Source: Corallococcus praedator (GTDB taxonomy: Bacteria > Myxococcota > Myxococcia > Myxococcales > Myxococcaceae). From it: a stretch of DNA of 52,428 bases. The translations under genes were made by a program, and so were the position numbers. How positions within the stretch are numbered: position 1 is the first letter of the stretch; each line of letters opens with the position of its first letter. Below the pieces are notes generated by a model that did not search any database, had not been told where the DNA came from, and saw only the letters and a program-made list of their open reading frames with translations. The stretch lies in NCBI RefSeq assembly GCF_003612125.1, contig NZ_RAWI01000020.1:1-52428 (forward strand), given 5' to 3'. Shown here one piece after another: positions 41,661 through 52,428 of this stretch.

Positions 41661-43112
41661 TCACGCCCATGCCTTGCGGACCTCCGCGTAGTAGTTGCGG
41701 AAGAACGGCACCATCGCCGCGCGGTTGCCGTCCACGATGGCCAGCAGCTCCGGCGGCAGGACGAACTCCTCCTCCCCCAGCTCGTCGTAGAGCGAGTCCA
41801 GCATCTGCTGGTAGAACCGGGGGAAGGAGCGGTGCCAGCCGACCTTCGGCAGGCGGATGCCGTGCTCCCAGCCCATGGCCAGGTAGTGCTTGAGCGCCTC
41901 CGCTCGCGCCTCCGCCAGCGTGTAGAGGGAGATGGGTTTGCGCTCCGGCGGGAAGTCCTCGTTGACGAGCCCGGACTCCCCGCGCATCCGCCGCGCCAGG
42001 TGCTGGCCGAGCAGGGGCGACTGGAACAGGCCGTCCCGGTAGGTGCCGGTGAGCAGCCACAGGCCGTCCACGGACGTCGGGCCCATCAGGGGACAGGTGT
42101 CCACGGTGACGGGCCTGTTGCCCGCCTGCCAGCCGACGAGCTGCGCGGCGCAGAGGTCCTGGTCGATCTGCTCCAGGACGCACTCCAGCAGGAAGAACAT
42201 GTCGGCCGGCGTGGTGCGCAGCATCGGCCGCGCCATCAGGATGTTCGTCGCGCCGAAGTAGAGCTGGTTGCCCGCGCGGGGCATGCCGTGCAGGCCGCAG
42301 GCGAACGCGCGGTTCGGCGTCCGCACCACGTGCTTGAGCTGGGTCTTCGGCACCTGGAGCAGCAGCGACGTCCCTCCCCCGCTGAAGATGCGCGGGATGC
42401 GGCGCGCCAGCTCCGGAAGCTCGTCGAGGACCGCCTGCGTCCCGACGCCCATGGCGAGCACCACCTGGGGGGCCGCGAGCGTCCGGCCGTCCTCGAGCCG
42501 GACGCCGGTGACACGCCCCGCGCTCACGTCGAGCGCCTTGACCGCCCCGTCGATGAGCGAAACCCTGGAGGACTGTTCGAGGACCCGCGTGAGCCCCCGC
42601 AGCAGGCGGCTTGCGTCCACCGAGCCCTCGCGCGGCAGGAACAAGGCCCGCTTCGGCCGGCAGTCCTCCGCGGGGTACAGGCCGGGAACCTGGTTCGGAT
42701 CCAGCTCCTCGAAGGGCTCGCCCTCCGCCGTCGCCGCCTGCTGGATGGCGGCGTAGTTCTCATCCTCGATGGTTCCCGACTTCGCGTTGCTGAACACGAT
42801 GGTGCCGGCGTCGAGCCGCACCTGCTCCTCCGGGGGCAGCTCGCTGTTCAAGCCCTCCAGCCACGCGGGCCAGAGGCGGGCGGCGAGCACCCCCTGGGCA
42901 TGCCGCGCCCGGCCCGGCGCGGTGCGCAGCAATGGGGCCGTCACCTCGCCGTAGCAGCCCAGCATCGCGCCCGCGGCGCCGGACGCGCCACCGGGTCGGC
43001 CCGCGGGTCCCACCACCGCGATTCGCAGGTTGGAATCCTGGAGCGACAGGGCACGCGCGGTCGCCAGACCCAACGCGCCATTTCCCGCCACCACGACGTC
43101 ATAGGTGCTCAT
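41661..43112 (-). CDS. FAD-dependent oxidoreductase (DAO/ThiO-like) in RiPP-like locus
   Basis: A 483-aa flavoenzyme of the D-amino-acid/glycine oxidase (DAO) family. The N-terminal dinucleotide motif VVVAGNGALGLATARALSLQ (GxGxxG), GGASGAAGAMLGCYGEV, and the C-terminal GLWLLTGTYRDGLFQSPLLG are typical. The frame extends to 43301, but ATG 43112 has GAGGG upstream and starts exactly at the Rossmann strand. It is downstream of the 50-codon precursor-like gene and the two HExxH hydroxylase homologues on the same strand, after a hairpin. A role in oxidising the modified peptide, an amino-acid building block, or an unrelated amine is possible; which one is not shown. Confidence 0.85.
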   Translation of the reverse strand: MSTYDVVVAGNGALGLATARALSLQDSNLRIAVVGPAGRPGGASGAAGAMLGCYGEVTAPLLRTAPGRARHAQGVLAARLWPAWLEGLNSELPPEEQVRLDAGTIVFSNAKSGTIEDENYAAIQQAATAEGEPFEELDPNQVPGLYPAEDCRPKRALFLPREGSVDASRLLRGLTRVLEQSSRVSLIDGAVKALDVSAGRVTGVRLEDGRTLAAPQVVLAMGVGTQAVLDELPELARRIPRIFSGGGTSLLLQVPKTQLKHVVRTPNRAFACGLHGMPRAGNQLYFGATNILMARPMLRTTPADMFFLLECVLEQIDQDLCAAQLVGWQAGNRPVTVDTCPLMGPTSVDGLWLLTGTYRDGLFQSPLLGQHLARRMRGESGLVNEDFPPERKPISLYTLAEARAEALKHYLAMGWEHGIRLPKVGWHRSFPRFYQQMLDSLYDELGEEEFVLPPELLAIVDGNRAAMVPFFRNYYAEVRKAWA

Positions 43113-43179
43113 TCGTTGGATGCCCTCGGCGGGTCTGGGAGGTCCACACGGCGTTGACGTCCGGTCATCCGGTCCTGGG

Positions 43180-43217
43180 GCCCGCCGCGCCCGCATGCGA
43201 GCGCGGACACGGCGGGC
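43180..43217 (-). terminator. GC-rich hairpin between precursor and flavoenzyme genes
   Basis: The perfect 8-bp outer stem GCCCGCCG / CGGCGGGC encloses a further GC-rich inner pairing. It lies 23 bp after the precursor stop and 67 bp before the flavoenzyme start, with no T-run. It looks like an attenuator or mRNA-protecting hairpin that would let the precursor be made in excess, a common arrangement in RiPP operons. Confidence 0.5.
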
Positions 43218-43239
43218 GGATCCTCGGACCGACCTTGAA

Positions 43240-43392
43240 TCAGTCTTCCTTCTTCGCCGTGTCGGAGACGATGTACGGCGGCCACCACTGGCGCTCCGCA
43301 CTCGACCCGCACGTCACGGTCGGCTCCTGCAGCTGCTCCTTCTTGGCCAGGAGGTCCTTCACGGTCTCAAGCCACTGCGATCCGTTGTTCAT
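43240..43392 (-). CDS. 50-aa RiPP precursor-like peptide
   Basis: A 50-codon gene with an excellent RBS (AAGGAG, 8 bases before ATG 43392) whose ATG overlaps the TGA of the upstream hydroxylase gene (ATGA). Residues 1-24 form a charged amphipathic helix (QWLETVKDLLAKKEQLQEP), as expected for a leader. The rest has a distinct composition: one Cys (C28) in TVTCGSS, then AERQWWPPYIVSD with a Trp-Trp-Pro-Pro-Tyr block at 36-40, and a charged tail TAKKED. Position and coupling to two PqqD-fused HExxH enzymes make it the likely substrate. I know no named family with this WWPPY core. The product structure and cleavage site are unknown. Confidence 0.78.
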   Translation of the reverse strand: MNNGSQWLETVKDLLAKKEQLQEPTVTCGSSAERQWWPPYIVSDTAKKED

Positions 43393-44843
43393 GCGATTTC
43401 TCCTTGCTGCCGGGTTGGCTCTACGAGGGTGCTGCGTACAAGCGTCTCCAGTCCCGTGCGCAGCTGGCGGCGTGCTTCATCGGGGGCAACACGCCCCCCG
43501 ATCGCCTCCAGATACGCCCGCTCCATCTCAGCGAACGTCCGGCCATCGCTGAGTTCGAAGATCAGCCACGCATTCAGATCGAGCCAATGCAGCTTTGGCG
43601 CGTCCGGCGAGAAGACCATCAGGCACTCGCCCCGGGTCGAGGGGCGGGCCCGCAGACCGCGAACCTTCTGGTAGGCCGCCTTCTCGGGGGCGCTCGCGCG
43701 CCCTCCGGCCGCCTTGCTGAACACCTCGCGGTCGACGGGTGCCAGGGAGTCACTCAGCCACCGGACGAAGTCCCGCCCTTGAGGCGTCAGCAGATGCGAC
43801 CATTCCGTCTGGAGCTGTTCGCCCAGGTAGCGCGCCCGGTCCACCGAGCGTCCGAAGCGCGAGCCGCCGTCGTTGTTCACCACCGACATCGCATGCGGAC
43901 GCGTGGCGTAGGCGGACGGGTCCCCGAAGCGCTCGATGAGCGAACGGTCCGCCGACAGCGCGGCGGCCTTGAAGAGCGCCAGATGGACATACACATGGTA
44001 GGCGAACACCGTGCGGACGATGGACCAGCGCACGTCCCGCCAGGGCACCTGGATGGTCTCCTCGGGCTTCGCCGCGATCGACACCGAGCGGGTGGCGTCG
44101 AAGAGCTTCATGTGAAGCCCTTCGTGCAGAAGGCACCCGGCGACATCCCAGGGGTTCCCCAGGTCCTTCAGCGACAGGAAGATGGTGGAGGGCGTCAGGT
44201 CCCCGCCGGCGGCGGACAGGACGGTGCCACCTTCGAGCCGGGCGCTGAGCAGCGCGATGGCCTCGATGTGCGTCAGCGCGCTCGCCCCTGAATGCGGCAG
44301 CAGCTGGGAGAGCAGCGCGATGGAGTCGTTGATCTTCCCCTGGGCGGACGCATCCGGGCTCAGCAGCTTCCCGCCGCTCTTGGGGTTCGTCAGGAAGATG
44401 CCGTCGAACGCCGCATGCAGCGCCTTGGAATAGGCATCCCCGCGTTGGGCCACGTCCCACAGCCACTTCGGGGTCTCCGTGCCCACGCGAAAGCGCGACG
44501 GCATGCGCGACTCGCACAGTCCCAGGGGAAGCGCCTCCAGCGCTCCGGGCAACATCTCCTCCAGGGGATGGGGTGACGCCAGCCGGCCCGCCTCCAGGTC
44601 GGAGAAGGCCTGCTCCAGCGTCAGCCGGACCAGCGGGTCGAAGAAGATGCGACGTGCATCGACATCGTTGAGCGCCTCCACGGCGGTCACCGCGTGAGAC
44701 AGGGAGGGCAGCCGCTCGGCGAACAGCTCCAGGCCGAAGCGATAGCGGGTCAGGACCTTCGCGAGGATGCGCGGCGAGTCTCCGAAGGAGGGATGCCCGG
44801 TCAGGGCCCGGTCCGCCGCGTGGATGACGTCCGAAGCGCCCAT
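43389..44843 (-). CDS. HExxH-type (2-oxoglutarate) peptide beta-hydroxylase homologue, copy 2
   Basis: A 484-aa protein of the family now called aKG-HExxH-type peptide beta-hydroxylase (formerly TIGR04267 HExxH RiPP modification protein). The signature NPWDVAGCLLHEGLHMKLFD gives HEGLH at 240-244; further shared blocks are FAYHVYVHLALFKAA and PHAMSVVNNDGGSRF. The C-terminal 80 residues look like a PqqD-type leader-binding domain (GECLMVFSPDAPKLHWLDLN, AWLIFELSDGRTFAEMERAY). It starts at ATG 44843, which shares its A with the TGA of copy 1 (TGATG); GTG 44846 is an alternative. It is followed by the coupled precursor gene. Catalysis is inferred from the family. Confidence 0.82.
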   Translation of the reverse strand: MGASDVIHAADRALTGHPSFGDSPRILAKVLTRYRFGLELFAERLPSLSHAVTAVEALNDVDARRIFFDPLVRLTLEQAFSDLEAGRLASPHPLEEMLPGALEALPLGLCESRMPSRFRVGTETPKWLWDVAQRGDAYSKALHAAFDGIFLTNPKSGGKLLSPDASAQGKINDSIALLSQLLPHSGASALTHIEAIALLSARLEGGTVLSAAGGDLTPSTIFLSLKDLGNPWDVAGCLLHEGLHMKLFDATRSVSIAAKPEETIQVPWRDVRWSIVRTVFAYHVYVHLALFKAAALSADRSLIERFGDPSAYATRPHAMSVVNNDGGSRFGRSVDRARYLGEQLQTEWSHLLTPQGRDFVRWLSDSLAPVDREVFSKAAGGRASAPEKAAYQKVRGLRARPSTRGECLMVFSPDAPKLHWLDLNAWLIFELSDGRTFAEMERAYLEAIGGRVAPDEARRQLRTGLETLVRSTLVEPTRQQGEIA

Positions 44844-46345
44844 CACGACACCCGCCCTTCGGTGACCGGTTCAATCATTCCACTCGACACGAGTCCCTCG
44901 AGGGTCGGCGCGAGCTGGGCCCAGGCGCGCTCGGCCCCGAGTCCCAGCGACGCGGTATAGGAGGACAGCATCTCTTCCTCGGTCTTGCCGTCGCACAGCT
45001 CGAAGGCCAGCCAGGCCGGAAGGTTCAGCGTGACGATCTTCCGCGAGCCCGGATCCAGGGCGAACAGCACCTCCGAGGACGGCGAGCGGCGCAGGGAGAG
45101 GTCCCGGCCCTGCCGATAGCGCACCGGCGAGGGGGCCCGGCCCTGGGTGAGCACCGGTGGCCTCGCGACAGGCCCCATCGGTCCGCCGGGCCGGTCGCTG
45201 CCCAGGGCCTCCAGGGGACGGATCGCCTCCCAGAGCCAGGCGATCATCTCCCGCCCGTACGGCGTCACCCGCGACGCCAGTGGGCCTTCCAGTTGGGTGT
45301 GCAGGAAGTCGAGCCGCTCCTCCGCCCGGGAGAAGGGCTTCTGGGTGTCGTTGTTCACCACCGACATCGCGTGGGCCGGCGCGCTGTAGTCCCGAGGCGC
45401 ACCGAACTCCGCGTGGCAGCCAGGCCCGAGGTGCTCCACGGCGGCTCGGAACACCTGCATGTGCGCATACGCGTGGTAGGCGAAGATGCTGTTCGACAGT
45501 GAGGTCTTCCTGCCCCAGGCCAGCTCGACAGGGCCGTCATCCGTCACGATGGCGCCCGTGCGAATCAGGTCGGAGAGCTTGAGGTGGATGGCCTCATGCA
45601 GGATGTGACCCGCCGTATCCCAGGGGTTCTCCAGCTCGTGCGGGTCGATGAAGATCATGCACGGGGTGCCGTCGCCCCCGGAGCCCGTCAACATCCGGCC
45701 TCGCGGCCCCCGGATGTTCGCGATGGCGATGGAGTGCAGGTGTCGGAAGATGCTGGCCGTCATCTCCGGCACCAGCCGCTGGATCAGCACGCAAGCGCGC
45801 TCCAGTCCCGCGACCATGGACAGCGTGGGGCGGATGATGTCGACGCTGCTTTCGGCGCCCGGCATGAACCCGGTGCGGATGCTCTCGCGCAGCCTGTCGC
45901 GCAGGGGCGTCGCCTCCTCCGGGAGATCCCACACCCAGACCTTGCCCCCGGGGCCCACGGCCAGGTCGCGTCCCATCGCGGAGCGAGAGAGGCACCGGCC
46001 CGGCGTTCGCGCGACACATGCGAGGGCTTCCCCCAGCAACCCGGGCAGCTCCTCGCCCGCGGCCCCATCCGGTCCTGACGTCTCCAGTCGGCTGATGGCG
46101 GCCTCCAGCGCCGCGCGCACGAGCAGATCACCCAACACGGCTTCCGCCGTCGTGGCGTCCAAGGCCTCGATGCGACCCGCGACGTCACGCAGACGCGCGT
46201 CCCGCCGGGCCAGGACCTCCAGCGCGAACCGGTAGCGCTCGCTGACGCGCAGCACGATCCGCGACGAGTTTCCGAACTGCTCGTGATGCTGAAGTCGGCC
46301 GTCGGTGAGCCGGATCACATCCGTTCGTTGCACGCTGTTCTCCAT
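44843..46345 (-). CDS. HExxH-type (2-oxoglutarate) peptide beta-hydroxylase homologue, copy 1
   Basis: A 500-aa paralogue of the next gene, first in the leftward RiPP-like operon. Signature NPWDTAGHILHEAIHLKLSD contains HEAIH (250-254 in this numbering); FAYHAYAHMQVFRAA and AHAMSVVNNDTQKPF match copy 2. The C-terminal domain (EVLFALDPGSRKIVTLNLPA, WLAFELCDGKTEEEMLSSYT) is a good PqqD-like match. ATG 46345 aligns with the start of copy 2; ATG 46375 would add 10 residues and neither has a strong RBS. Two divergent paralogues (different active-site neighbours) suggest two modification events or a catalytic/helper pair on the same leader. Confidence 0.8.
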   Translation of the reverse strand: MENSVQRTDVIRLTDGRLQHHEQFGNSSRIVLRVSERYRFALEVLARRDARLRDVAGRIEALDATTAEAVLGDLLVRAALEAAISRLETSGPDGAAGEELPGLLGEALACVARTPGRCLSRSAMGRDLAVGPGGKVWVWDLPEEATPLRDRLRESIRTGFMPGAESSVDIIRPTLSMVAGLERACVLIQRLVPEMTASIFRHLHSIAIANIRGPRGRMLTGSGGDGTPCMIFIDPHELENPWDTAGHILHEAIHLKLSDLIRTGAIVTDDGPVELAWGRKTSLSNSIFAYHAYAHMQVFRAAVEHLGPGCHAEFGAPRDYSAPAHAMSVVNNDTQKPFSRAEERLDFLHTQLEGPLASRVTPYGREMIAWLWEAIRPLEALGSDRPGGPMGPVARPPVLTQGRAPSPVRYRQGRDLSLRRSPSSEVLFALDPGSRKIVTLNLPAWLAFELCDGKTEEEMLSSYTASLGLGAERAWAQLAPTLEGLVSSGMIEPVTEGRVS

Positions 46346-48807: not shown

Positions 48808-51800
48808 ATGCGTACCCCCACGTCGATCAGCGGCCATCTGGAGTTGCATGCCGCTGCGCAGCCCCATCGGCTCGCCTACCGCTACCTGACGACCGGCGAC
48901 TCCGACGGGCCGGTGGAGACGCTGACGTGGGCGGAGCTGGACCGCCGGGTGCGCGCGGTGGCGGCGGCCCTGCAACGCGCCGGGGCCACGGGAGAACGGG
49001 CGCTGCTGCTGTACCCGCCGGGGCTCGACTTCGTGGTGGCGTTCCTGGGGTGCCTCGCCTCGGGCGTGATTGCCGCCCCTGCCTACCCTCCGGATCCAGG
49101 TCGTCTGGAGCGGACGCTGGGCCGGCTCCGCGCCATCGCTCGGGACTGTGACGCGCGGCTGGTGCTCACCACTGCGGCCATCGCGGGGATGGCCGAGGCG
49201 CTGCATCCCATGGCGCCGGAGCTGGGAGAGCTCCAGTGGGTGGCGTCGGATGCGGTGCCCGACGACGAGGCGGACGCCTGGCGACGTCCGGCGCTCGCGA
49301 CCTCGGGCGTCGCGTTCCTGCAGTACACGTCGGGGTCTACCGGGACGCCGAAGGGCGTCGTCATCACCCACGACAACCTCCTGCACAACGAGCGGATGCT
49401 CAAGCAGGGCTTCGGCCACTCCATCGAGGGGAGCAGCGGCGTCGGTTGGCTGCCGCTCTACCACGACATGGGACTCATCGGGAACGTGCTGCAGCCGCTC
49501 TACATCGGCATGCCGTGCACGCTGATGTCTCCGCTGGCCTTCCTGCAGCGCCCGTCGCGCTGGCTGCGCGCCATCTCCACCTTCCGGGGGACGACGAGCG
49601 GCGGGCCGAACTTCGCCTACGACCTGTGCGTGCGAAAGGTCACGGAGGCGGAGCGCGCCGGGCTGGACCTGTCGAGCTGGGACGTGGCCTTCAACGGGGC
49701 GGAGCCGGTGCGCACGGCGACGCTCGAGCGCTTCGCGGCGGCCTTCGCGGCGCATGGCTTCCGCAGGGAGGTCTTCTACCCGTGCTACGGGCTCGCCGAG
49801 TCCACGCTGTTCGTGACCGGGCCGGTGAAGGCCGCGGCGCCCCCCGTCGTCGTCTCGCTCGACGTGCCGGCACTGGAGCAGGGGCGCGTGGTGCCCCTGG
49901 CGGAGGAGTCGCACGGCGCGCGCACGCTGGTGGGCTGCGGGCACGCCTGGCTGGAGCAGCGGGTGGCCATCGTCGACCCGGTGAGCGGACGGCGTGCGGG
50001 CGATGACTCGGTGGGGGAGATCTGGGTCTCCGGGCCGAGCGTGGCGCGGGGCTACTGGAACAACCCGGAGGCGACCGCGAAGACGTTCGAGGCGCGGATC
50101 GCGGACACGGGTGAGGGGCCCTTCCTGCGGACGGGCGACCTGGGCTTCCAGCACGGGGGCGCGCTGTTCGTCACGGGGCGGCTCAAGGACCTGATCATCG
50201 TGCGTGGGCGCAACCTGTACCCGCAGGATGTGGAGCTGACCGCCGAGCAGGCCCACACGGCGGTGCGGCAGGGGTGTGCCGCGGCGTTCGGGCTGGAGGT
50301 GGCGGGCGAGGAGCAGCTCGTCGTCGTCGCGGAGGTGGACGAGCGCGCTGGCACGCCAGCGGCCGAGGTCGCGGCGGCGATCCGGGAGGCGGTGGCGGCG
50401 GAGCACGGGGTCGTCGTGCACGCGGTGGCGCTCCTGCAATCGCGGACGCTGCCGAAGACGACGAGCGGCAAGGTGCAGCGCCACGCGTGCCGCAACGCCT
50501 TCGTGGAAGGAACGCTCTCGCTCGTGTCGGAGGTGGCGTTCGCCCCGGCGAGGGTCGAGCCGTCACCGGAGGACGCGGCGGCGCAGGGACTGGAAGCCTG
50601 GCTGTTCGCGAGGATCGCCGCGCTCACCGGCACGCCCGTGGGGGCGATTGATCCGGGGCAGCCGTTCGCCCACTACGGGATGGACTCCAAGGACCTCGTG
50701 GGCCTGTCTGGAGACCTGGAGACCCGTCTGGACCGGCCGGTCTCCCCCGCCCTGATGTATGAGCAGCCGAGCCTCACCGCGCTGCTGCGGCACCTGGAGG
50801 GGAGCACGGAGCAGGGGCAGCCGGTGCCCATCTCCCGCTCGGAGCAGTTGGAGACGGAGCCGGGTCCCCTGTCGGCGGGCGGGGCGCGACTGCTCGTGCT
50901 CGACCGGCTGGCGCCCGGCAGCGCGCTGTACAACATCCACGCCGGGCTCTCCATGAAGGGCGCCCTCGACGCGGGCGCGCTGCGCAGGAGCCTGAACGCG
51001 CTCGTCACGCGCCACCCGATGCTGCGGGCCACCTTCCCCGAGTCGGAAGGCCGGCCGGGACTCGTCATCTCCGGCCCTGCCCTCCTGGCGCTGCCCGTCG
51101 TTGATCTGCGCGACCTCCCCCTGGAGAAGCGGCAGGCGGAGCTGGCCCGGCTCTCGGAGGAGCACGCCACGGCGCCCTTCGATCTCACCCGGGGGCCACT
51201 GGTGCGGCTCACCCTGGTGGCGCTCGGGGACGCGGAGCACGTGCTCCTGCTCACGCAGCACCACATCATCACCGACGCGTGGTCCATTGGTGTCTTCGCC
51301 CGCGAGCTGGCCGAGCTGTACGAGGGCTTCCGCACAGGCTCACCCCGGACGCTCGCGGAGCTTCCGGTGCGCTACGCCGACTACGTCCGCTGGCAGGACG
51401 CGTGGCTCCAGGGAGAGGACGCCCGACGTTCGGTGGCGTGGTGGAAGCAGAAGCTCGCGGGGCTGCCCCGGCTGGACCTCCCGACGCCCCGGACACCTGG
51501 CCGTGGAACGACCCATGCGGGTGACGCGTACGCCTTCGCGCTGCCGGCGGGGCTCACGTCGGCATTGAAGGACCTGGCGCGCCGCGAGTCCTGCACGCTG
51601 TACGTCGCGCTCCTGACGGCCTGGGCCACGCTGCTGCATCGCTACTCCCACCAGCAGGCGGACTTCGGGATTGGCACCGTCACCGCGGGGCGCGATCGGC
51701 GCGAGCTGCGCGATGTGGTGGGCTTCTTCGTGAACACGCTCGTCCTGCGCTGCGACCTGTCCGGCGACCCGGAGGGCGGCGTGCTGATGCGCAGGCTTCG

Positions 51801-52428
51801 CGGCGTCGTCGAAGGCGCGCTCCGTCATCAGGAGGTGCCCTTCGATCAGGTGGTGAGCGCCGTCGGGGCGCCCCGGGGACAGGACCTCAACCCGCTCTTC
51901 CGCGCGGGCTTCGTGCTGGAGAACGTGCCCTTTCCCGAGCTGGCCCTCCCGGGACTCACGTGGACGCCCGTGCTCCAGCGGCCGGATGGCGGAGTGCCGG
52001 GCACGGCGAAGTTCGACCTCGGCCTCTCGATGGTGGAGACGAACGGAGGACTCTCCGCGGCCATCGAGTACGCGACCGACCTGTTCGATGCGGCGACGAT
52101 CGAACGGATGGCGGGGCACTTCCAGCGGCTGGTGGAGGGGCTCGTGGAGGCACCGCGGCGGCGGGTGTCGGAGCTGTCGCTCCTGACCGCCGGGGAGCGA
52201 CACCGGCTGCTGAGCGAGTGGAACGAGACGGCGGCGGAGCAGCCCAGGGACGTCTGCCTCCACGAGCTGTTCGAGGCTCAGGCCCGGACGGCGCCCGGGG
52301 CCCTGGCGGTGAGCTTCGGGGCGCAGCGACTCACCTATGGCGAACTCAACCGTCGAGCGAATCAGCTCGCGCACCACCTGCGGGGGCTGGGGGTGGGCCC
52401 GGAGGTGCGGGTCGGGCTGTGCATGGAG
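48808..52428 (+). CDS. NRPS loading and first modules: FAAL-ACP-C-A (3' end outside window)
   Basis: This frame is open from ATG 48808 to the right edge (1207 codons, no stop). Order: fatty acyl-AMP ligase, residues about 1-580 (FLQYTSGSTGTPKGVVITHD; WLPLYHDMGLIGNVLQPLYI; GRNLYPQDVE, the FAAL-specific tail); an acyl carrier protein with HYGMDSKDL, phosphopantetheine Ser627; a condensation domain with HHIITDAWS (His818-His819, Asp823); and the start of an adenylation domain (LTYGELNRRANQLAHHL) at about 1150. It should load a fatty acid and join it to the first amino acid of a lipopeptide. The amino acid code lies outside the window. Confidence 0.9.
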   Translation, partial: MRTPTSISGHLELHAAAQPHRLAYRYLTTGDSDGPVETLTWAELDRRVRAVAAALQRAGATGERALLLYPPGLDFVVAFLGCLASGVIAAPAYPPDPGRLERTLGRLRAIARDCDARLVLTTAAIAGMAEALHPMAPELGELQWVASDAVPDDEADAWRRPALATSGVAFLQYTSGSTGTPKGVVITHDNLLHNERMLKQGFGHSIEGSSGVGWLPLYHDMGLIGNVLQPLYIGMPCTLMSPLAFLQRPSRWLRAISTFRGTTSGGPNFAYDLCVRKVTEAERAGLDLSSWDVAFNGAEPVRTATLERFAAAFAAHGFRREVFYPCYGLAESTLFVTGPVKAAAPPVVVSLDVPALEQGRVVPLAEESHGARTLVGCGHAWLEQRVAIVDPVSGRRAGDDSVGEIWVSGPSVARGYWNNPEATAKTFEARIADTGEGPFLRTGDLGFQHGGALFVTGRLKDLIIVRGRNLYPQDVELTAEQAHTAVRQGCAAAFGLEVAGEEQLVVVAEVDERAGTPAAEVAAAIREAVAAEHGVVVHAVALLQSRTLPKTTSGKVQRHACRNAFVEGTLSLVSEVAFAPARVEPSPEDAAAQGLEAWLFARIAALTGTPVGAIDPGQPFAHYGMDSKDLVGLSGDLETRLDRPVSPALMYEQPSLTALLRHLEGSTEQGQPVPISRSEQLETEPGPLSAGGARLLVLDRLAPGSALYNIHAGLSMKGALDAGALRRSLNALVTRHPMLRATFPESEGRPGLVISGPALLALPVVDLRDLPLEKRQAELARLSEEHATAPFDLTRGPLVRLTLVALGDAEHVLLLTQHHIITDAWSIGVFARELAELYEGFRTGSPRTLAELPVRYADYVRWQDAWLQGEDARRSVAWWKQKLAGLPRLDLPTPRTPGRGTTHAGDAYAFALPAGLTSALKDLARRESCTLYVALLTAWATLLHRYSHQQADFGIGTVTAGRDRRELRDVVGFFVNTLVLRCDLSGDPEGGVLMRRLRGVVEGALRHQEVPFDQVVSAVGAPRGQDLNPLFRAGFVLENVPFPELALPGLTWTPVLQRPDGGVPGTAKFDLGLSMVETNGGLSAAIEYATDLFDAATIERMAGHFQRLVEGLVEAPRRRVSELSLLTAGERHRLLSEWNETAAEQPRDVCLHELFEAQARTAPGALAVSFGAQRLTYGELNRRANQLAHHLRGLGVGPEVRVGLCME

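What the first reader, a model, noticed from the sequence alone, without database searches (positions are those of the whole stretch)
41661..46345. Compact RiPP-like locus: two HExxH hydroxylase homologues, a coupled precursor and a flavoenzyme
Four leftward genes are tightly packed: HExxH copy 1 (TGATG overlap) copy 2 (ATGA overlap) 50-codon peptide, then a hairpin and a DAO-family oxidase. Each HExxH protein ends in a PqqD-like domain, the usual leader-recognition element of RiPP enzymes. There is no radical SAM protein, lanthipeptide synthetase, YcaO or ATP-grasp gene, so the chemistry would be hydroxylation plus flavin oxidation only. This combination is not one I know as a named RiPP class.
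Basis: partly seen in the sequence, partly recalled or inferred. Interest (0 to 1): 0.87.

Follow-up and report, generated by a model that had tools for sequence, protein, structure and literature searches.

The report
Candidate formimidoylated-peptide (RiPP) gene cassette
A compact, mobile set of four genes shared by some soil-dwelling myxobacteria and Lysobacter looks like the recipe for a small ribosomally made peptide that two iron enzymes oxidise and that a flavin enzyme, related to antibiotic-capping enzymes, would cap with a formimidoyl group taken from glycine, a modification I did not find reported for such peptides.

Summary
The minus strand of 41661-46345 carries two αKG-HExxH hydroxylase homologues, a 50-codon peptide and a flavoprotein, tightly packed. 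Both HExxH proteins match TIGR04267 above cut-off. Their predicted structures match the ChlB HExxH oxygenase, and each ends in an RRE (leader-binding) fold. The peptide is a real gene. All 15 myxobacterial genomes with the HExxH pair have it, as do six Lysobacter-group loci and a simpler myxobacterial variant; its core VTxGSxxERxW[W/L]PP is invariant.

The "DAO-family oxidase" is better described as a full-length relative (E 1e-91) of N-formimidoyl fortimicin A synthase / BD-12 Orf1. Every catalytic residue checked is conserved (NOS-bridge Cys, His/Tyr dyad, both glycine-binding Arg); the aminoglycoside-binding residues are replaced by a clade-specific set. This flavoenzyme clade occurs only beside the HExxH pair: the same 15 of 195 Myxococcota and 6 of 297 genomes of the Lysobacter family.

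Best reading: a RiPP pathway, undescribed as far as I can find, in which RRE-guided HExxH enzymes oxidise the core and the flavoenzyme transfers a glycine-derived formimidoyl (or iminoacetyl) group to a peptide amine, probably the N-terminus after leader removal. Linkage, folds and residues are shown; chemistry, acceptor and function are inferred.

The parts
44843..46345 (-). HExxH1: 500-aa αKG-HExxH peptide hydroxylase homologue with C-terminal RRE
   Evidence: TIGR04267 1.5e-20; predicted structure (pLDDT 85) matches ChlB HExxH domain 8s5f Z 22.8 and SjiH 22ob Z 22.4
45584..45598 (-). HEAIH metal motif of HExxH1 (residues 250-254); H295 also invariant
   Evidence: invariant in 21 homologues
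44858..45139 (-). C-terminal RRE / PqqD-like domain of HExxH1 (about residues 403-496)
   Evidence: PF05402 17.5 bits, sub-cut-off; TbiB1-leader complex Z 10.7, PqqD Z 8.6, PbtF RRE Z 7.6
43389..44843 (-). HExxH2: 484-aa paralogue (about 35% identical to HExxH1) with C-terminal RRE
   Evidence: TIGR04267 5.1e-19; 22ob Z 24.1 and 8s5f Z 23.8
44112..44126 (-). HEGLH metal motif of HExxH2 (residues 240-244); H287 also invariant
43404..43685 (-). C-terminal RRE domain of HExxH2 (about residues 387-480)
   Evidence: TbiB1 Z 10.8, lasso B1 6jx3 Z 9.9; a separate gene in Lysobacter and in one other myxobacterial genus
43240..43392 (-). Precursor peptide gene, 50 aa: MNNGSQWLETVKDLLAKKEQLQEPTVTCGSSAERQWWPPYIVSDTAKKED
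   Evidence: conserved in 15 myxobacterial loci, 6 Lysobacter-group loci and 3 DAO-less loci
43273..43317 (-). Invariant core codons 26-40 (VTCGSSAERQWWPPY)
   Evidence: VTxGSxxERxW[WL]PP invariant across two phyla; versus four Myxococcus-group loci: 3-4 synonymous and 0 amino-acid changes in the core, 3-6 synonymous and 5-7 amino-acid changes in the leader
43180..43217 (-). GC-rich hairpin between precursor and flavoenzyme genes, no T run
   Evidence: stem present in all 13 myxobacterial loci aligned, two pairs with changes on both sides; not called a terminator
41661..43112 (-). FAD enzyme of the N-formimidoyl fortimicin A synthase / Orf1 family, 483 aa
   Evidence: PDB 8gri/7xqa E about 1e-91 over residues 4-482; ThiO model 98 bits, below its 250.8 cut-off
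42297..42299 (-). Cys272 of the flavoenzyme = Orf1 Cys281 (NOS-bridge cysteine)

Best explanation
The four genes are a self-contained RiPP biosynthetic cassette. The 50-aa precursor has an amphipathic leader (about residues 1-25) that is held by the RRE domains of the two HExxH proteins, and a 15-residue core, VTCGSSAERQWWPPY. HExxH1 and HExxH2 are Fe(II)/α-ketoglutarate oxygenases that hydroxylate core residues at the β-carbon; [quoted passage not shown] The flavoenzyme oxidises free glycine on FAD, passes the product as an N-O-S adduct to Cys272, and transfers a formimidoyl group (or iminoacetyl group) to an amine of the peptide. No lysine in the mature region is common to all precursors, and known acceptors include the α-amine of a glycyl group, so the likeliest acceptor is the N-terminal α-amine exposed when the leader is removed, possibly at the invariant Gly29. 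Shown: gene linkage, co-occurrence, conservation, fold and residue identity. Inferred: leader binding, hydroxylation sites, formimidoyl transfer, acceptor and bioactivity.
For: HExxH identity: TIGR04267 above cut-off, ChlB/SjiH fold, metal motif invariant in both paralogues. RRE: fold matches to TbiB1-leader, PqqD, PbtF and ThcOx and a separate RRE gene in other genomes. Precursor: invariant core and SD/ATGA coupling. Unit: HExxH pair and >80% identical flavoenzyme found in exactly the same 15 of 195 Myxococcota, with the peptide in the same 15 of the 96 family genomes searched; HExxH pair and flavoenzyme in the same 6 of 297 genomes sampled from the Lysobacter family, with the peptide at all six; several different flanking contexts; one genome keeps a scar fusing HExxH1 codon 56 to flavoenzyme codon 414. 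Flavoenzyme: full-length 8gri/7xqa match; C281, H284, Y294, T298, F316, R342, R368 and E426 all conserved while acceptor residues E312, R306, T423, E434 and M438 are replaced by a clade-specific set; clade monophyletic, support 1.0.
Against: No product, transcript or activity is known. No transporter or protease is conserved in the cassette, so export and leader removal must be supplied elsewhere or by HExxH cleavage. The DAO-less variant shows that the HExxH/peptide part can exist without the flavoenzyme. The acceptor is deduced by exclusion: myxobacterial precursors do have lysines in the leader and tail. The catalytic-residue match predicts glycine chemistry, not that a peptide is the acceptor.
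Confidence: 0.55

Rival explanations
1. A RiPP cassette as above, but the flavoenzyme acts on the peptide as an oxidase or uses another donor (for example oxidising an N-terminal or side-chain amine) rather than transferring a formimidoyl group.
For: Same superfamily as ThiO, D-amino acid dehydrogenase and sarcosine oxidase; the acceptor pocket residues differ from Orf1.
Against: Nearest solved relatives are all N-formimidoyl synthases at full length, 311 versus about 50 bits for ThiO-type glycine oxidase. Glycine-binding R342/R368, H284/Y294 and the NOS cysteine are invariant, as is the extra C-terminal region that ThiO lacks.
Confidence: 0.22
2. A RiPP cassette in which one HExxH protein is an oxidative backbone cleaver like PflC/PosC, releasing the core, and hydroxylation is secondary.
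For: No protease gene; PflC/PosC cleave at residues with a small side chain, Ala or Gly (PMC12636437) and Gly29 is invariant; two diverged paralogues (about 35% identical) suggest two jobs.
Against: No ARMD-like motif and no NHLP leader; oxidative cleavage at Gly29 would leave a glyoxylyl rather than an amine at the new N-terminus, which conflicts with N-terminal formimidoylation at that site. This is a variant of the best explanation rather than a full competitor.
Confidence: 0.15
3. The peptide is not a secreted RiPP but a carrier or leader from which a small modified molecule is excised, or an intracellular regulator.
For: No conserved transporter; the core is almost invariant across phyla, more so than a typical diversifying antibiotic.
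Against: Leader/core layout and RRE-bearing enzymes are the usual RiPP set; a tail of variable length follows the core.
Confidence: 0.08

Closest known systems
pfl/pos clusters of Pseudomonas (PflC/PosC, HEXXH enzymes; PMC12636437)
   Same: A RiPP precursor modified by an αKG-HExxH enzyme; no dedicated protease in the cluster.
   Different: They have an MNIO-nitroreductase fusion, GNAT, transporters, an NHLP leader and a Gln/ARMD core; here there are two HExxH enzymes with built-in RREs, a short leader, a VTxGSxxERxWWPP core and a formimidoyl-synthase homologue.
Biphenomycin (BipH/BpmH) and nitrilobacillin (PesO) clusters (PMC12707348, PMC12257519, PMC13060819)
   Same: An αKG-HExxH hydroxylase tailors a RiPP core.
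   Different: Those pathways are built on MNIO and B12-radical SAM or asparagine synthetase-like enzymes; none was found in the genes scanned here.
ChlB fused radical SAM/αKG-HExxH proteins (structure 8s5f)
   Same: Same HExxH oxygenase fold (Z 22.8 and 23.8).
   Different: No radical SAM domain and no cyclophane step; instead a C-terminal RRE.
N-formimidoyl fortimicin A synthase and Orf1 of BD-12 biosynthesis (PDB 7xqa, 8gri; PMC10156733)
   Same: Full-length homology; glycine-oxidising residues and the NOS-bridge cysteine conserved.
   Different: Aminoglycoside-binding residues replaced; sits in a RiPP cassette, not an aminoglycoside or streptothricin cluster.
Tandem HExxH + C39-ABC transporter loci in other myxobacteria (L114, L115)
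   Same: Two adjacent HExxH genes; at L114 small peptides with Cys-Gly-Ser motifs.
   Different: Double-glycine leaders, peptidase-containing transporter, no RRE end seen in the sequence comparison and no formimidoyl-synthase homologue.

Membership tests
αKG-HExxH peptide β-hydroxylase (TIGR04267) | Profile match above curated cut-off | tested here: met
   73.9 and 68.9 bits, cut-off 40
αKG-HExxH peptide β-hydroxylase (TIGR04267) | HExxH metal motif and ChlB-type fold | tested here: met
   Motif invariant in 21 rows; 8s5f Z 22.8 and 23.8
αKG-HExxH peptide β-hydroxylase (TIGR04267) | Fe(II)/αKG-dependent hydroxylation of a peptide | not testable with these tools
   Needs co-expression and mass spectrometry
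RiPP pathway | Small conserved precursor gene coupled to modifying enzymes | tested here: met
   Present at all 21 full loci; core invariant; ATGA coupling in the window
RiPP pathway | RRE (PqqD-like) domain by structure | tested here: met
   TbiB1-leader Z 10.7/10.8, PqqD Z 8.6/7.8
RiPP pathway | Pfam PqqD gathering score (not required of an RRE) | tested here: not met
   17.5 bits against 23.4 for copy 1, no hit for copy 2; divergent RREs often escape this model (general knowledge)
RiPP pathway | Mature, leader-processed product | not testable with these tools
   No metabolomics available
N-formimidoyl fortimicin A synthase / Orf1 | Full-length homology including the extra C-terminal domain | tested here: met
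   Residues 4-482 align to 32-511 of 8gri/7xqa, E about 1e-91
N-formimidoyl fortimicin A synthase / Orf1 | NOS-bridge Cys281 and glycine-site H284, Y294, R342, R368 | tested here: met
   All conserved in the window protein and its orthologues
N-formimidoyl fortimicin A synthase / Orf1 | Aminoglycoside-type acceptor site (E312, R306, T423, E434, M438) | tested here: not met
   A, M, M, G, S in the window protein; so not filed as an aminoglycoside N-formimidoyl synthase
N-formimidoyl fortimicin A synthase / Orf1 | Formimidoyl transfer from glycine | not testable with these tools
   Needs an enzyme assay with labelled glycine
Glycine oxidase ThiO (TIGR02352) | Equivalog score cut-off | tested here: not met
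   98.1 bits against 250.8
Known HExxH RiPP classes (biphenomycin, nitrilobacillin, pfl/pos, ChlB cyclophanes) | Partner class enzyme: MNIO, radical SAM or asparagine synthetase-like | tested here: not met
   Absent from the cassette and from the flanking genes scanned; the conserved unit is four genes, plus a separate RRE and a methyltransferase in Lysobacter

The most novel reading that the evidence does not exclude
A new RiPP class defined by αKG-HExxH enzymes and a dedicated N-formimidoyl synthase: ribosomal peptides capped at the N-terminal amine with a glycine-derived formimidoyl (amidine) group, spread as a mobile cassette between Myxococcota and Lysobacter.
Probability: 0.4. Interest if true: 0.87.

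Novelty: new variant of a known kind. Interest (0 to 1): 0.78.

Why it matters
If true, it adds a post-translational modification (N-formimidoylation or N-iminoacetylation) that I did not find reported for RiPPs, and moves an enzyme family known from aminoglycoside-type antibiotics into ribosomal peptides, where the substrate is genetically encoded and easy to vary. The minimal four-gene cassette makes the question directly testable in E. coli, and Lysobacter enzymogenes ATCC 29487, a named strain, carries it.

Tried and rejected
(1) The flavoenzyme as an ordinary glycine or D-amino acid oxidase: ThiO scores far below its cut-off and the N-formimidoyl synthases match full length. (2) Tail lysines as the formimidoyl acceptor: suggested by myxobacterial tails (KKED) and their absence in the DAO-less variant, but the Lysobacter-group loci have the flavoenzyme and none of the tails read there carries a lysine. 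(3) Cys28 as the key residue: replaced by Thr in Lysobacter and Gln in the DAO-less variant. (4) Part of the neighbouring NRPS cluster (window 48808-52425): the flanks change between genomes while the four genes stay. (5) Anti-phage defence: no PADLOC hit. (6) The hairpin as a terminator: no T run, not called; the stem is conserved, but most pairs do not vary and only two show changes on both sides, so a transcript-shaping role is only weakly supported. (7) A weak peptide hit in G061 (L050) lies in a long unrelated reading frame and was discarded. (8) Literature: searches for formimidoyl with ribosomally synthesized peptides, for formimidoyl fortimicin, and for HExxH with myxobacteria or Lysobacter found no description of this cluster, but only open-licence PubMed Central papers were searched. 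The SjiH structure paper (22ob) was not found. (9) A sequence search of PDB with HExxH1 alone found nothing and with the alignment only a weak ChlB hit; the fold comparison was needed.
Full report
What is there. The minus strand of 41661-46345 carries four genes: HExxH1 (44843-46345, 500 aa), HExxH2 (43389-44843, overlapping by TGATG), a 50-codon peptide gene (43240-43392, overlapping by ATGA, with AAGGAG upstream) and a flavoprotein (41661-43112, 483 aa) after a GC-rich hairpin.

The HExxH proteins. Both exceed the TIGR04267 cut-off and are the only TIGR04267 matches in the genome. AlphaFold models made from window proteins and fetched homologues (pLDDT 85 and 83) match the HExxH domain of ChlB, an αKG-dependent oxygenase (8s5f, Z 22.8 and 23.8), and SjiH (22ob, Z 22.4 and 24.1), far above the unrelated zincins at about Z 5. 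HExxH, K246, D249, R252, H283 and H287 (HExxH2 numbering) are invariant in 21 sequences of both paralogues. Each protein ends in a domain that matches lasso RREs bound to leader (TbiB1, Z 10.7 and 10.8), PqqD (Z 8.6 and 7.8), PbtF RRE and ThcOx. Pfam sees it only weakly. In Lysobacter the HExxH2 protein stops early and the RRE is a separate 95-aa gene; in a third myxobacterial lineage (G031-G033, L047-L049) it is a separate 100-aa gene. This natural split supports a leader-binding module.

The precursor. The peptide reads MNNGSQWLETVKDLLAKKEQLQEP-TVTCGSSAERQWWPPY-IVSDTAKKED. It is present at every locus with the HExxH pair and flavoenzyme. Across Myxococcota, Lysobacter and the DAO-less lineage the invariant residues are VT-GS--ER-W-PP in the core, with only scattered positions elsewhere (M1, N3, L8, L14). 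Between the window and four Myxococcus-group loci the core has 3-4 synonymous and no amino-acid changes, while the leader has 3-6 synonymous and 5-7 amino-acid changes. This is the pattern of a selected coding sequence.

The flavoenzyme. Pfam DAO is only the superfamily. The best solved relatives are all N-formimidoyl fortimicin A synthase / Orf1 (8gri, 7xqa; E about 1e-91 over the whole length, about 310 bits), against 50 bits for the next family, glycine oxidase. Orf1 oxidises free glycine on FAD and passes the product, through an N-O-S adduct on Cys281, to the amine of an acceptor bound 13.5 Å away, giving a formimidoyl or iminoacetyl group (PMC10156733). By alignment the window enzyme keeps C281, H284, Y294, T298, F316, R342, R368 and E426 (window C272, H275, Y285, T289, F307, R333, R359, E416), while acceptor-site residues E312, R306, T423, E434 and M438 are A, M, M, G and S. 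In about 50 aligned family members the catalytic set is nearly constant and the acceptor set varies by clade; the Myxococcota and Lysobacter enzymes of this cassette share one acceptor set and form one clade with support 1.0. One caution: one of the two collection-scan patterns contained that cysteine, so its constancy there is partly by construction; the phylum search by whole protein gave the same residues.

The unit. Searching 195 Myxococcota genomes, the HExxH pair and a >80% identical flavoenzyme are in the same 15 genomes, and the peptide (E<1e-16) is in the same 15 of the 96 family genomes searched. In 297 genomes sampled from the Lysobacter family, the same six have both, all adjacent to the peptide, a separate RRE and an added SAM methyltransferase. 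Gene flanks differ: the Corallococcus-type site, at least two sites in the Myxococcus genus, Archangium and Lysobacter. One genome (G079) retains a scar in which codon 56 of HExxH1 is followed at once by codon 414 of the flavoenzyme, as if the cassette had been lost in one deletion. More distant flavoenzymes (36-52%) occur without HExxH genes nearby, among them beside NRPS/PKS genes in other Corallococcus, Archangium and Myxococcus-group genomes. The simple Fisher value for the 15/195 overlap is 1e-22, but the genomes are related, so the different contexts and the second phylum carry more weight.

How it most likely works. Shown: linkage, fold, residues, conservation. Inferred: the RREs hold the leader; the HExxH enzymes hydroxylate core residues, as known family members do on His, Asp, Phe, Gln and Pro (PMC12636437, PMC13060819), or one of them cuts the backbone as PflC does; the flavoenzyme adds a glycine-derived formimidoyl group to the peptide. 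The acceptor is narrowed by comparison: the Lysobacter precursors have no lysine in the core or tail, and no lysine of the mature region is shared by all flavoenzyme-linked precursors. That leaves the N-terminal α-amine made by leader removal. BD-12 is N-formimidoylated on a glycyl amine (PMC10156733), and Gly29 is invariant in the core, so a formimidoyl-Gly29 N-terminus is a concrete prediction. It is an inference.

Novelty. HExxH hydroxylases and RREs are known in RiPPs; N-formimidoyl synthases are known in aminoglycoside-type antibiotics. I found no report that joins them (open-licence papers only). I rate it a new variant of a known kind, and a candidate new RiPP class if the chemistry is confirmed.

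Noticed in passing
L114 (8102-12524) and L115 (4645-12058): Another tandem-HExxH system in myxobacteria with a C39-peptidase ABC transporter and HlyD-like protein; at L114 there are two double-glycine-leader peptides (…VIGGL…TCGSTYISCGSTYTAPEQP…). Probably a separate, more conventional exported RiPP family.
   Followed up: partly
L047, L048, L049 (about 9.6-11.8 kb): DAO-less variant: single HExxH protein, separate 100-aa RRE and a 46-aa precursor with Cys replaced by Gln and no tail. A natural comparison for assigning which step the flavoenzyme does.
   Followed up: partly
L106-L112: N-formimidoyl-synthase homologues (50-52%) beside NRPS/PKS genes in Corallococcus, Archangium and Myxococcus-group genomes, suggesting amidine-capped non-ribosomal products.
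   Followed up: partly
L122, L123, L140, L213-L215: Lysobacter-group version carries an additional SAM methyltransferase between precursor and flavoenzyme (for example L123 11477-12370).
   Followed up: partly
L113 10012-10309: Deletion scar joining the start of HExxH1 directly to the end of the flavoenzyme gene: a lost cassette.
   Followed up: yes
   Followed up: no
window 48808-52425: NRPS gene (adenylation, carrier and condensation domains) running to the contig end, next to a YhhN and a DUF2378 gene; apparently unrelated to the cassette.
   Followed up: no
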